Source: Bacillota bacterium
GTDB taxonomy: Bacteria > Bacillota > Sulfobacillia > JAIMAT01
Assembly: GCA_023511835.1 (NCBI GenBank)
Contig: JAIMAT010000012.1
Span: forward strand, 1 to 40,505
DNA: 40,505 bases
Direction: 5' to 3'
The notes under the pieces were generated by a model. The model made no database searches. It saw only the letters and a program-made list of their open reading frames with translations, and was not told where the DNA came from. Of this stretch, positions 1 through 3,912 are shown piece after piece; positions within the stretch are counted from its first letter, which is position 1; every line of letters starts with the position of its first letter. Made by a program: the position numbers and the translations under genes.

Positions 1-1406
1 TGAAGACGCTGGGCCTCCTGGCGCTGATGGCGCAGAGCGGCCTCGCCGTGCCGGCCGAGGCGGGCTCGGAGCTGGCCCCCTTTCCCTCGGTCTGGGTGGA
101 CGTGGGCGACGAGCAGAGCATCGAGCAGAGCCTGAGCACCTTCTCCTCGCACATGGGGCAGATCGCGGCCATCCTGGAGGCGCTGGAGCCGGGGGCGCTG
201 GTCCTTCTGGACGAGATCGGCGCCGGCACCGATCCCCGCGAGGGGGCCGCGCTGGCCGCCGCCATCCTGGAAGACCTGCTGGAACGGGGCGCGCGGGTGC
301 TGGCCACCACCCACCTGGGTGACCTGAAACTGCTGGCCACGCGCCTGCCCAGGGCGGAGAACGCCAGCGTCGCCTTCGACGAGGCGACGCTCCAGCCGAC
401 CTACCGCCTGGAGCTGGGCCTTCCGGGGCGCTCCCACGCGCTGGTCATCGCCCGCCGCCTGGGCCTGCCCGAGCGGGTAGTGGAGCGGGCGCGCGCCCTC
501 CTGCCCGAGGGCGAGGAGGAAGTGGGCGCCCTGGTCCGCCGCCTGGAGGAGGAGCGCGCGGAACTGGAGGCGCAGCGGAGGCGGCTGGCGCGCCTCCTGG
601 AGCGCCAGCAGCAGGCGGCGCGGGAGGCCGAGGAGCGCCTGGAGCGCGTCCGCCAGCGCGAGGAGCGCCTGCGCGCGGAGGCGCGCGCCGAGGCGCTGGC
701 CGTGGTAGCGGAGGCGAAGCGCGAGGCCGACCGCACGCTGCGGGAGCTGCGCCGGCTGCTGGAGGAGGCGGCCGCCCGCCCGGAGGCGCTGCGCGAGGCG
801 GAGGAGGCGCGGCAGGCGCTCCATCGCCTGCGCGCCCGCGTGGAGGAGGCGACCGCGGGCGGCGAGGGGGTGCCGGCGGAGCCGGTGCTGCCGGCACGGG
901 CGCCCCGGCCGGGGGAGCGGGTCTGGGTCGACTCGCTGCGCACCGAGGGCGAGCTGCTGGAGGTGCAGGGGCGCCAGGCGGTGGTACGGGTGGGCTTCCT
1001 GCGCGTCGAGGTGCCGCTCGCCCAGCTGCGGCCGCTGCCGGCGCGTGACGGAGCGCGGGCCGCCGGCGCGGGCGGGGAGAGCAGGGCGGAGAGCGCGGGC
1101 GGCGCGGGCGTGGCGGCGCTGGAGCGGCGCAAGGCGGAGAGCGTGGCTCCGGAGGTGGACGTGCGCGGGATGAGCGCCGACGAGGCGCTGGAACGGGTGG
1201 CCAAGTACCTGGACGACGCGCTCCTCGCCGGGCTCGACCGGGTGCGCATCATCCACGGCAAGGGGACCGGCGTCCTGCGGCGGGCGGTGGGTGACTACCT
1301 GCGGGGCCATCCGCTGGTGGCGGAGCAGCGGCTGGCCCCGCAGGAGGAAGGCGGCGCGGGGGTCACGGTGGTCCTCCTCCGCCCGGGGCGGGAGCCGGCG
1401 CGCTGA
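1..1406 (+). CDS. mutS2: Endonuclease MutS2, 3' part (5' end outside the window)
   Basis: MutS2 is a MutS-like ATPase that acts on branched DNA and, in Bacillus, on collided ribosomes. The gene enters from the left edge already in frame: the first residues (KTLGLLALMAQSG) lie just after the Walker A loop, which is outside the window. Visible in order are the ABC Walker B/D-loop (LLDEIGAGTDPREGAA), the H-loop (ATTHLGDLK), a long Arg/Glu-rich coiled coil (about positions 500-860), a KOW-like linker, and a C-terminal Smr domain beginning VDVRG with the HGKGTG motif and the GGAGVTVVLL ending. The usual LDLR/LDVR Smr motif is VDVR here. The 3' end overlaps the convergent PBP gene by 44 bases. The ATG at 27 is internal, not a start. 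Identity is very secure. Confidence 0.95.
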   Translation, partial: KTLGLLALMAQSGLAVPAEAGSELAPFPSVWVDVGDEQSIEQSLSTFSSHMGQIAAILEALEPGALVLLDEIGAGTDPREGAALAAAILEDLLERGARVLATTHLGDLKLLATRLPRAENASVAFDEATLQPTYRLELGLPGRSHALVIARRLGLPERVVERARALLPEGEEEVGALVRRLEEERAELEAQRRRLARLLERQQQAAREAEERLERVRQREERLRAEARAEALAVVAEAKREADRTLRELRRLLEEAAARPEALREAEEARQALHRLRARVEEATAGGEGVPAEPVLPARAPRPGERVWVDSLRTEGELLEVQGRQAVVRVGFLRVEVPLAQLRPLPARDGARAAGAGGESRAESAGGAGVAALERRKAESVAPEVDVRGMSADEALERVAKYLDDALLAGLDRVRIIHGKGTGVLRRAVGDYLRGHPLVAEQRLAPQEEGGAGVTVVLLRPGREPAR

Positions 1407-3912
1407 CCGCGATCTCTCCCTGCTCGGCCGGGTGGAGGTCGCAGCGGAAGGGATAGGTGCCCGGCCGGGAGAGGTCGAGCGGGAGCGCCACGCTCTGCCC
1501 GGGCGCCAAGTCGAGGCGGACGCCCAGGCCGTCGACGACCAGGCGGTGGGCCTGGCCGCTCTCGTTCCGGATCCGGAAGAGGTAGCTGCCGGTGGAGAGC
1601 TCCAGCCTGGAGGGCGACCAGCCGGCCTCGCCGATGGCCAGGTCGACCACCGTGGCTGCCGGCGCGCCCGCGCCCGTCTGGCCGGCGGGGGAGGGGCTGC
1701 AGCTGGCGGTGGGCGCCGTCATCGCCATGTCGGCCGCCTGGGCGACGGGCGGCCGGCGCAGGAAGAGCCGGCTGACCGGCGTGCAGGCGCAGCCCGGCTG
1801 GTAGAGGAGCTGGGGGTCTTCGGCGCAGACCTCCGCCGTGTAGAAGGCGTCGTCCAGCTCCGCCGGCTGCGTCCCGGCCACGAAGATCTCGTCCCGCGCC
1901 CAGCGGTCGGGGGTGAGCGGCCCGGCGATCTTGCCCGACTTGGCCGAGATGCGGACGGTGACGATGCCGGGCGGCCGGGTGAAGTCCACCGGCTTCTGCC
2001 CCTCGAGCGCCATGGTCATCAGCTGACGGAAGAGCCCGGCCGGGCCGTGTGCCGAGCCGCCCTGCATGCCGCCGGGCAGCGCCGCCATGGAGCCCTCGTG
2101 GCCGATCCAGACGATGCCGGTCAGCGTGGGCGTGAAGCCGGCGAACCAGGCGTTGTAGAAGTTCTCGTCCGTCCCCGTCTTGCCGGCCGTAGGCCAGCCG
2201 GGGATCCGGGCCGCGCCGCCGGTGTGGCTGGGCAGGATGAAGCCGTTGGCCGGCCGGTCCTCTACGACGGAGCGGAGGATGTCGGTCATCACGTAGGCCA
2301 CCTGGGGGCTGATGACGCGGGTCAGCGACGGGTCGTCCTGCTCCAGCACCTTGCCGTCGGCGGTGACCACCTTGCGGATGACCAGGGGCTTGGGCCGGAG
2401 GCCTCCGTTGGCGATGGTGGAGTAGCCCACCGCCATCTCCACGGGCGTCACCCCGTGCGTCAGCCCGCCCAGCGCCAGCGAGAGCGTCCGGTCCTGGGGC
2501 GTCAGCGACTCCAGGCCGAGCGCGCGCGCCATGGACCAGCCCTTGTCGACGCCCACGGCGTCGAGGACGCGCACCGCCACCACGTTGACCGAGCGGCGGA
2601 CCGCCTCGCGGACGGTGGTCAGCCCCATGTACTGGCCGCTCTCGAAGTTGCGCGGCTGCCAGGGCGGCTGGCCGGGCCGCGGAAAGGAGACGGGCGAGTC
2701 GTCGAAGACGGTGGCGGCCGTGATCCCCTGGCTGAGGGCGGGCACGTAGACGGCCAGGGGCTTGATGGCGGAGCCCGGACGGTTCGGCAGCACCGCCCAG
2801 TTGTTGCCCAGGCTGGTGGTGTGTTCGAGGCCGCCCACCATGCCCCGGATCTCGCCCGTGCGCGGGTCCATCAGCACGGCCGCCGCCTGGAGCGGCCGCT
2901 GCCCTGCCCGGCGCAGCTGCTCGGGCGGATACCAGGCCGCGAGGTCGTCGCTGACGATCTTCTGGGCCTGCTGGTCGATGCGCGGGTCGAGCGTCGTGTA
3001 GATGCGCAGCCCGCCCTCGTAGACCTGCTTCCAGCTGTAGCGCTGCAGCAGCTGCTGGATCACGTAGTCGACGAACCAGGGATCGGGATAGCCCTTCTGC
3101 ACGATGCGCTGCGCCGGATGGACGCCCAGAGGCTGTCGCTTGGCCGCCTCGGCCTCCGACGTCGAGATGTAGCCCGCCTCGGCCATGGCGTCCAGCACCA
3201 GGTTGCGGCGCTGGAGCGCCGCCTGCGGGTGGCCGATGGGTTCGTAGAGGTTGGGCCCCTTGGGGAGGGCGGCCAGCGTCGCCGCCTGGGCCAGCGTCAG
3301 GCGGCTGGCGTCCACGTCGAAGTAGGCGCGCGCCGCCGCCTGGATGCCGTAGGCGGAGTGGCCGAAGTAGATCAGGTTGAGGTACATCTCCAGGATCTGC
3401 TGCTTGGAGTACTGGCGCTCCAGCGCCAGGGCCACCAGCGCCTCGCGGATCTTCCGCTCCAGCGTCCGCTCCGTGCCCACCTGGCTGTAGAGCGTCCGCG
3501 CCAGCTGCTGGGTGATGGTGCTGCCGCCCTGCAGCGAGCCGCCGCGCAGGTCGTTGACGAGGGCGCCCAGGGTGCGCACCACGTCGATGCCGTGATGCTG
3601 GTAGAAGCGCCGGTCCTCGATGGCCACGAAGGCCTCGGGCACCACCGCGGGCATCTGCGAGAGGCGCACCCAGGTGCGGTCCTGGGTGGCGAAGATGGTG
3701 GTGACGGGCTGGCCGTAGCGGTCGTAGATGATGGAGGACATCTGCGGGGTGGGCGGCGTCGGCGCCAGCTCCGGCAGCGTCCTCAGCGCCGCCAGGAAGA
3801 GGCCGGCACCCGCGCCCGCGGCGACCACGAAGAGGACGAAAAGCAGGAGAAGGGCGATCCGTCCGGCGCGCAGGCTCGGGCGCCGCTGGTTGCGGACGTG
3901 CTGACCCGACAT
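1363..3912 (-). CDS. Class A penicillin-binding protein (PBP1A type) with C-terminal cupredoxin-like domain
   Basis: Bifunctional peptidoglycan glycosyltransferase/transpeptidase, 849 aa, anchored in the membrane with its bulk outside. A basic N-terminus is followed by a membrane segment (about 19-43). The glycosyltransferase domain (about 60-240) has catalytic Glu99 in EDRRFYQHHG and the GGSTITQQLARTL motif. The transpeptidase has S381-A-I-K, S441-V-N and K578-T-G. Residues 690-712 resemble the usual PBP1A tail with paired Cys (C696, C708, C710). A Pro/Ala linker then leads to an extra domain (about 753-836) that ends like a blue-copper fold: H789 in GQAHRLVV, then YPFRCDLHP with C824 and H827. 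The usual Met ligand position reads Glu-Gln. Start ATG 3912 has AGGGGG upstream and an extended -10 promoter. The core is certain; the cupredoxin assignment is by motif only. Confidence 0.95.
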   Translation of the reverse strand: MSGQHVRNQRRPSLRAGRIALLLLFVLFVVAAGAGAGLFLAALRTLPELAPTPPTPQMSSIIYDRYGQPVTTIFATQDRTWVRLSQMPAVVPEAFVAIEDRRFYQHHGIDVVRTLGALVNDLRGGSLQGGSTITQQLARTLYSQVGTERTLERKIREALVALALERQYSKQQILEMYLNLIYFGHSAYGIQAAARAYFDVDASRLTLAQAATLAALPKGPNLYEPIGHPQAALQRRNLVLDAMAEAGYISTSEAEAAKRQPLGVHPAQRIVQKGYPDPWFVDYVIQQLLQRYSWKQVYEGGLRIYTTLDPRIDQQAQKIVSDDLAAWYPPEQLRRAGQRPLQAAAVLMDPRTGEIRGMVGGLEHTTSLGNNWAVLPNRPGSAIKPLAVYVPALSQGITAATVFDDSPVSFPRPGQPPWQPRNFESGQYMGLTTVREAVRRSVNVVAVRVLDAVGVDKGWSMARALGLESLTPQDRTLSLALGGLTHGVTPVEMAVGYSTIANGGLRPKPLVIRKVVTADGKVLEQDDPSLTRVISPQVAYVMTDILRSVVEDRPANGFILPSHTGGAARIPGWPTAGKTGTDENFYNAWFAGFTPTLTGIVWIGHEGSMAALPGGMQGGSAHGPAGLFRQLMTMALEGQKPVDFTRPPGIVTVRISAKSGKIAGPLTPDRWARDEIFVAGTQPAELDDAFYTAEVCAEDPQLLYQPGCACTPVSRLFLRRPPVAQAADMAMTAPTASCSPSPAGQTGAGAPAATVVDLAIGEAGWSPSRLELSTGSYLFRIRNESGQAHRLVVDGLGVRLDLAPGQSVALPLDLSRPGTYPFRCDLHPAEQGEIAVSAPAPAPGGGGPP

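What the first reader, a model, noticed from the sequence alone, without database searches (positions are those of the whole stretch)
1363..1640. Class A PBP with a C-terminal cupredoxin-like domain
The exported PBP1A-type enzyme ends in about 85 residues with a first-His motif (H789), then C824 and H827 in the spacing of a type 1 copper loop; the methionine ligand position is Glu-Gln. Blue-copper domains are rarely tied to peptidoglycan synthases. It might bind copper, sense metal or oxidation, or be only a beta-sandwich relic. Seen: motif and position. Inferred: fold and copper binding.
Basis: partly seen in the sequence, partly recalled or inferred. Interest (0 to 1): 0.62.

Follow-up and report, generated by a model that had tools for sequence, protein, structure and literature searches.

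The report
Cell-wall synthase carrying a cupredoxin tail
A bacterial cell-wall-building enzyme ends in a domain folded like a copper protein; the fusion is real and recurs across the bacterium's whole class, with a complete metal site kept in this genus but lost in most relatives, so copper may matter here but cannot be the tail's only job.

Summary
Observation confirmed. ORF 1363-3912(-), 849 aa, is a complete class A PBP (TIGR02074, transglycosylase plus transpeptidase) whose residues 750-836 match Pfam Cupredoxin_1 (E 2.6e-11). AlphaFold2 gives a beta-sandwich at pLDDT 91.6. Foldseek's best PDB match is a copper-bound Cupredoxin_1 protein (TM 0.91), followed by CuA/amicyanin-loop, EfeO and nitrosocyanin structures. 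H789, C824 and H827 are present, and the loop C-x2-H-x2-E-x-G puts Glu830 where amicyanin has Met98.

The fusion is not unique to this genome. At one syntenic PBP1A locus (mutS2-PBP-tyrS) it occurs in at least 45 genomes from 22 of 48 families of the class, and I found none in about 390 other genomes of the phylum. The metal site varies: type-1-like (this genus and others), a complete CuA motif (one genome), C-x4-H, partial, or absent. Most tails have lost Cys and the second His.

Best reading: an inherited CuA/Cupredoxin_1-lineage accessory domain on the wall synthase. Its class-wide role is probably docking or scaffolding; it keeps a metal site, probably for copper, in this genus. Copper binding and regulation are inferred, not shown. 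This is a new domain architecture built from known parts.

The parts
1363..3912 (-). gene for an 849-aa PBP1A-family class A penicillin-binding protein
   Evidence: TIGR02074 555.5 bits over cut-off 508.75; ORF and translation
3781..3873 (-). N-terminal membrane helix, aa 14-44
   Evidence: helix 14-44 in the full-length model; hydrophobic sequence
3184..3711 (-). transglycosylase domain, aa 68-243
   Evidence: PF00912, E 2.6e-65
2017..2883 (-). transpeptidase domain, aa 344-632, with S381xxK384, S441xN443, K578TGT581
   Evidence: PF00905, E 3.3e-30; motif residues invariant in seven relatives
1699..1827 (-). linker with four cysteines C696, C708, C710, C738 (possible disulfides)
   Evidence: Cys positions in three species; C696, C708 and C738 invariant in seven relatives
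1405..1665 (-). cupredoxin domain, aa 750-836
   Evidence: PF13473 over cut-off; AlphaFold2 pLDDT 91.6; Foldseek TM 0.91 to 4hcf
1546..1548 (-). H789, first His ligand position
   Evidence: invariant in the genus; His in 82% of 51 tails
1441..1443 (-). C824, Cys ligand position
   Evidence: invariant in the genus; only Cys of the domain; present in 21 of 49 tails on the tree
1432..1434 (-). H827, second His ligand position
   Evidence: invariant in the genus; a second His in 17 of the 21 tails with Cys
1423..1425 (-). E830, at the axial Met98 position of amicyanin (C-x2-H-x2-E-x-G)
   Evidence: invariant in the genus; same spacing in G022 and G041

Best explanation
The tail is a genuine cupredoxin domain of the CuA/Cupredoxin_1 branch, joined early in this class's history to the syntenic class A PBP and held outside the membrane behind a Cys-bearing linker. 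Shown: fold class, fusion, class-wide spread, variable metal site. Inferred: its class-wide role is as an accessory domain on the wall synthase (docking, positioning or scaffolding), because the fold outlives loss of the metal ligands in most lineages. Inferred more weakly: in the window's genus and a few others the intact H789/C824/H827 site with Glu830 axial still binds one metal ion, most likely copper, which would stabilise the domain or make its docking metal- or redox-dependent. My estimates: fold 0.97; common ancestry of the tails 0.9; metal binding in this species 0.5; copper-dependent control of the enzyme 0.15-0.2.
For: Pfam Cupredoxin_1 over cut-off; AlphaFold2 pLDDT 91.6; Foldseek TM 0.91 to copper-bound 4hcf; the profile of twelve tails finds COX2 CuA domains at E 3e-17. 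Tail in at least 45 genomes of 22 family groups at the conserved mutS2-PBP-tyrS locus. Pfam independently finds Cupredoxin_1 and COX2 in relatives' tails. Tail presence is clustered on the PBP tree: 7 changes against 28.9 shuffled. The site is kept in the genus while the tail diverges, 4 of 4 site residues among 33 of 86 invariant columns, p about 0.02. Of the tails with Cys, 17 of 21 also keep a second His. SufI/FtsP is a precedent for a copper-less cupredoxin-fold scaffold in wall synthesis (PMC2661564).
Against: No binding or interaction data. No partner is known. H789 is kept even without Cys, so its conservation says little about metal. The ligand conservation test in the genus is weak (three species, post-hoc choice of sites). 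Only two independent contrasts support joint loss of Cys and His. The full-length model does not place the domain. The degenerate tails are divergent, and a few could be other beta domains.
Confidence: 0.6

Rival explanations
1. Copper or redox sensor: the tail binds copper (type-1-like, Glu axial) and its occupancy or redox state switches the PBP's activity or partners, tuning wall synthesis to metal or oxidative stress.
For: Complete H-C-H-E site kept in the genus and complete sites in nine family groups; copper is handled outside the membrane in this genome (COX2, Sco1); copper is known to inhibit LD-transpeptidases and alter cross-linking (PMC11390936).
Against: Most orthologues have lost the site yet keep the domain; no second component or copper gene at the locus; no data on metal binding.
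Confidence: 0.17
2. Pure relic: the tail descends from a copper domain but binds no metal in this species either; the Cys and His residues remain by chance or for folding.
For: Metal ligands are lost many times in the class; H789 is conserved without the others; Glu in place of Met departs from a standard blue site.
Against: All four site residues are kept in three species while 62% of tail columns vary; the same C-x2-H-x2-E-x-G occurs in two other families; a single free Cys next to two His is a typical metal site.
Confidence: 0.18
3. Electron transfer or copper delivery: the domain shuttles electrons or hands copper to respiratory or other extracytoplasmic proteins.
For: Closest solved sequence relatives are CuA domains; the fold is also similar to the copper chaperone CupA (4f2e); CuA oxidase and Sco1 genes are in the genome.
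Against: The genome already has Sco1. Lineages without a COX1 match keep the site. The locus lies between mutS2 and tyrS, with no oxidase genes. A wall synthase is an unlikely carrier.
Confidence: 0.04

Closest known systems
PBP1A-family class A penicillin-binding proteins (TIGR02074; PF00912 + PF00905)
   Same: Same enzyme domains, motifs and single membrane helix; accessory C-terminal domains (PASTA, FN3, OB-type) are known on PBPs (general knowledge).
   Different: The accessory domain here is a cupredoxin; I found no description of that combination.
Cupredoxin_1 family (PF13473; 4hcf, EfeO, FtrB)
   Same: Same fold and Pfam family over cut-off; TM up to 0.91.
   Different: Those are standalone or iron/copper-transport proteins; this one is fused to a wall synthase.
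CuA domains of cytochrome oxidase subunit II and nitrous oxide reductase (PF00116)
   Same: Best profile matches of the tails; a complete C-x3-C-x3-H-x2-M motif in the G019 orthologue.
   Different: The window's tail has one Cys and a shorter loop, so it cannot form a two-copper CuA centre.
Amicyanin-type blue copper proteins
   Same: Loop spacing C-x2-H-x2-M-x-G matches C824/H827/E830/G832.
   Different: Glu in place of the axial Met.
SufI/FtsP of E. coli (PMC2661564)
   Same: Cupredoxin-fold protein tied to the peptidoglycan/division machinery; precedent for a copper-less scaffold.
   Different: Three-domain multicopper-oxidase fold, a separate protein rather than a PBP tail, and all but two copper ligands lost.

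Membership tests
Class A PBP (PBP1A family) | Transglycosylase and transpeptidase domains, family model over cut-off | tested here: met
   PF00912, PF00905; TIGR02074 555.5 bits over 508.75
Class A PBP (PBP1A family) | SxxK, SxN and KTGT motifs, N-terminal membrane helix | tested here: met
   S381, K384, S441, N443, K578-T581 invariant; helix 14-44
Cupredoxin (PF13473) | Pfam match over gathering cut-off | tested here: met
   43.9 bits against 27
Cupredoxin (PF13473) | Greek-key beta-sandwich fold | tested here: met
   Predicted only: pLDDT 91.6, TM 0.91 to 4hcf
Type 1 (blue) copper protein | His, Cys, His equatorial ligands in the right order and spacing | tested here: met
   H789, C824, H827; alignment with the profile
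Type 1 (blue) copper protein | Axial Met | tested here: not met
   E830 at that position in all three species; axial residue varies in known proteins, so this lowers 'blue', not 'copper-binding'
Type 1 (blue) copper protein | Bound copper with the ~600 nm band and narrow EPR hyperfine | not testable with these tools
   needs purified protein
CuA domain (PF00116) | C-x3-C-x3-H-x2-M loop | tested here: not met
   One Cys in the window's domain; the motif is complete in the orthologous PBP of G019

The most novel reading that the evidence does not exclude
A peptidoglycan synthase whose activity or docking is controlled directly by a copper or redox centre in its own tail; the class would then hold a natural series from CuA through type-1-like (Glu axial) to metal-free versions of the same switch.
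Probability: 0.15. Interest if true: 0.85.

Novelty: new variant of a known kind. Interest (0 to 1): 0.57.

Why it matters
It adds a copper-protein fold to the small set of accessory domains known on cell-wall synthases. It also gives a set of orthologues at one locus in which the metal site runs from complete CuA to absent, so whether metal matters to a PBP can be tested by comparing relatives. If copper does act, it would link metal status to wall synthesis directly.

Tried and rejected
Chance motif or wrong frame: rejected (profile, fold, congeners, dozens of relatives). Assembly-made fusion: rejected (at least 45 genomes, conserved synteny). Fusion unique to this genome: rejected. Link of the metal site to aerobic oxidase: not supported; f5 genomes and G019 keep the site without a COX1 match. 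Fusion elsewhere in the phylum: among 398 sampled genomes no other frame of PBP length had a convincing match; the long frames outside the class were 592-661 aa, the size of NosZ, plus one weak 775-aa frame (G171:C121) that I did not examine. The tail alignment was too diverse for a scan of viral contigs. The full-length model did not resolve the tail because most aligned PBPs have unrelated tails. Literature searches for PBP with cupredoxin or CuA found no description; a search for azurin M121E found nothing.

Full report
What was checked. The minus-strand ORF 1363-3912 encodes 849 residues. It is a PBP1A-family class A penicillin-binding protein: TIGR02074 at 555.5 bits, Transgly aa 68-243 and Transpeptidase aa 344-632. 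The S381-x-x-K384, S441-x-N443 and K578-T-G-T581 motifs are invariant in seven relatives. Residues 750-836 match Pfam Cupredoxin_1 at 43.9 bits, E 2.6e-11, over the curated cut-off of 27. The named residues are there: H789, C824, H827, E830 and Q831. The PBP stop codon lies inside the convergent mutS2 gene, so about the last 13 residues (APAPAPGGGGPP) are encoded opposite mutS2 codons; the cupredoxin domain itself lies essentially outside the overlap.

Fold. AlphaFold2 on aa 751-837, with one other sequence in the alignment, gives a nine-strand all-beta model at mean pLDDT 91.6. Foldseek against the PDB gives copper-bound Cupredoxin_1 4hcf (TM 0.91, E 3e-9), then the CuA domain carrying the amicyanin loop (5u7n), EfeO, FtrB, nitrosocyanin, CuA and NosZ. 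A profile of twelve related tails finds cytochrome oxidase subunit II CuA domains at E 3e-17 and NosZ at 2e-12. The full-length model is good over the enzyme, but the tail is mostly below pLDDT 60, because nearly all aligned PBPs have unrelated tails. The domain's position relative to the enzyme is therefore unknown.

Metal site. The loop is C824-D-L-H827-P-A-E830-Q-G, the spacing C-x2-H-x2-M-x-G of amicyanin with Glu at the axial Met place (amicyanin numbering from general knowledge). C824 is the only Cys of the domain. The other four (696, 708, 710, 738) sit in the linker, an even number that could form two disulfides and leave C824 free (inference). In the three species of the genus the tail evolves fast: 33 of 86 columns are invariant, against 239 of 289 in the transpeptidase. 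All four site residues are identical; the chance for four random columns is 0.019, a weak test because the sites were named beforehand by the motif.

Spread. A search of 61 genomes and then of all 154 held genomes of the class with a tail profile, with the frames read directly, shows the tail inside PBP frames of at least 45 genomes from 22 of 48 family groups. Pfam, which was not built from my alignment, agrees: Cupredoxin_1 over cut-off in tails of G002, G003, G010, G012, G041, G047 and SURF_36, and COX2 over cut-off in G003, G019 and SURF_36. The neighbours mutS2 and tyrS are found beside tailed and untailed orthologues alike, so these are one gene with and without the domain. In 398 genomes sampled across the phylum no convincing PBP-length frame with this domain was found outside the class; one weak 775-aa frame was not examined.

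Which class. Two records are named by equal contig length: MAG-73 (L072, G028) and SURF_36 (L083, G150).

Variation of the site. Complete and type-1-like, H...C-x2-H: this genus, G022, G041, G012 and several f5 genomes (G006, G047, G097, G098, G099). The exact C-x2-H-x2-E-x-G form occurs in five genomes of three families. Complete CuA motif: G019 (CYVACGPGHDKM); near-complete in G003 (CTVYCGVDHARH). C-x4-H: G010, G087 and G035. Partial: G013 (His to Arg), G029, G031, G059 and G100. No Cys: 28 tails in the tree set. Cys with second His occurs in 17 tails and Cys without it in 4; none of the 28 tails without Cys was scored as keeping an aligned second His, although G152 and G153 have a His elsewhere in the loop. 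On a tree of the PBP cores, tail presence needs 7 changes (28.9 when shuffled) and site state 8 among tailed rows. Only two independent contrasts lie on well-supported branches, so joint loss is suggestive rather than proven. H789 is His in 82% of all tails, even without Cys, and so probably has a structural role too.

Physiology. The window's genome has COX1, two COX2 matches and Sco1, so copper is handled outside the membrane. But f5 genomes and G019, which keep a complete site, have no COX1 match, so the site is not tied to aerobic respiration.

Interpretation. Shown: fusion, fold class, class-wide orthology and variable metal site. Inferred: since the domain survives repeated loss of metal ligands, its general job does not need metal; docking or scaffolding on the wall synthase is the simplest idea, with SufI/FtsP as precedent (copper-less cupredoxin fold at the septal ring, proposed scaffold; PMC2661564). 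In this genus the intact site probably binds a metal, most likely copper, though with Glu in the axial place a classic blue site is not expected. Direct copper control of the enzyme is possible but unsupported. Copper is known to affect wall cross-linking through LD-transpeptidases (PMC11390936), which makes the idea worth testing.

Novelty. Both parts are known kinds; the architecture was not found in the held literature. That library lacks most subscription papers, and no public domain-architecture database could be consulted, so earlier annotation of the architecture cannot be excluded.

Noticed in passing
L002/L069 (G000:C2:68158-68481, minus): A small exported, probably lipid-anchored protein of the same genome has a CuA-like domain resembling the PBP tail (62 bits with the tail profile) with a degenerate loop NDVDCGAPCRSM; a relative is in G002.
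   Followed up: partly
L003/L004/L070 (G000:C72:6546-7121, plus): A 329-aa frame holds two cupredoxin domains in tandem.
   Followed up: no
L037, L040, L041 (G043, G024, G055): PBPs of the Thermaerobacter-like genomes carry ~320-aa tails with two weak cupredoxin- or Ig-like repeats and were counted as untailed here; they may be further degenerate forms.
   Followed up: partly
L153, G000:C60:10642-12128 (minus): A COX2 CuA match in a 649-aa open frame lies about 0.9 kb from a Sco1 gene, an apparent oxidase cluster.
   Followed up: no
L188, L189 (G153, G152): Tails in which both CuA cysteines read Ser while the rest of the CuA-type loop is recognisable (FYSAVFSGRHWDRM), showing a dead CuA site.
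   Followed up: partly
window 1363-1406: The PBP and mutS2 genes converge and overlap by 44 bases at their 3' ends; the two congeneric PBPs end about 13 residues earlier, without the Pro/Gly-rich end.
   Followed up: partly
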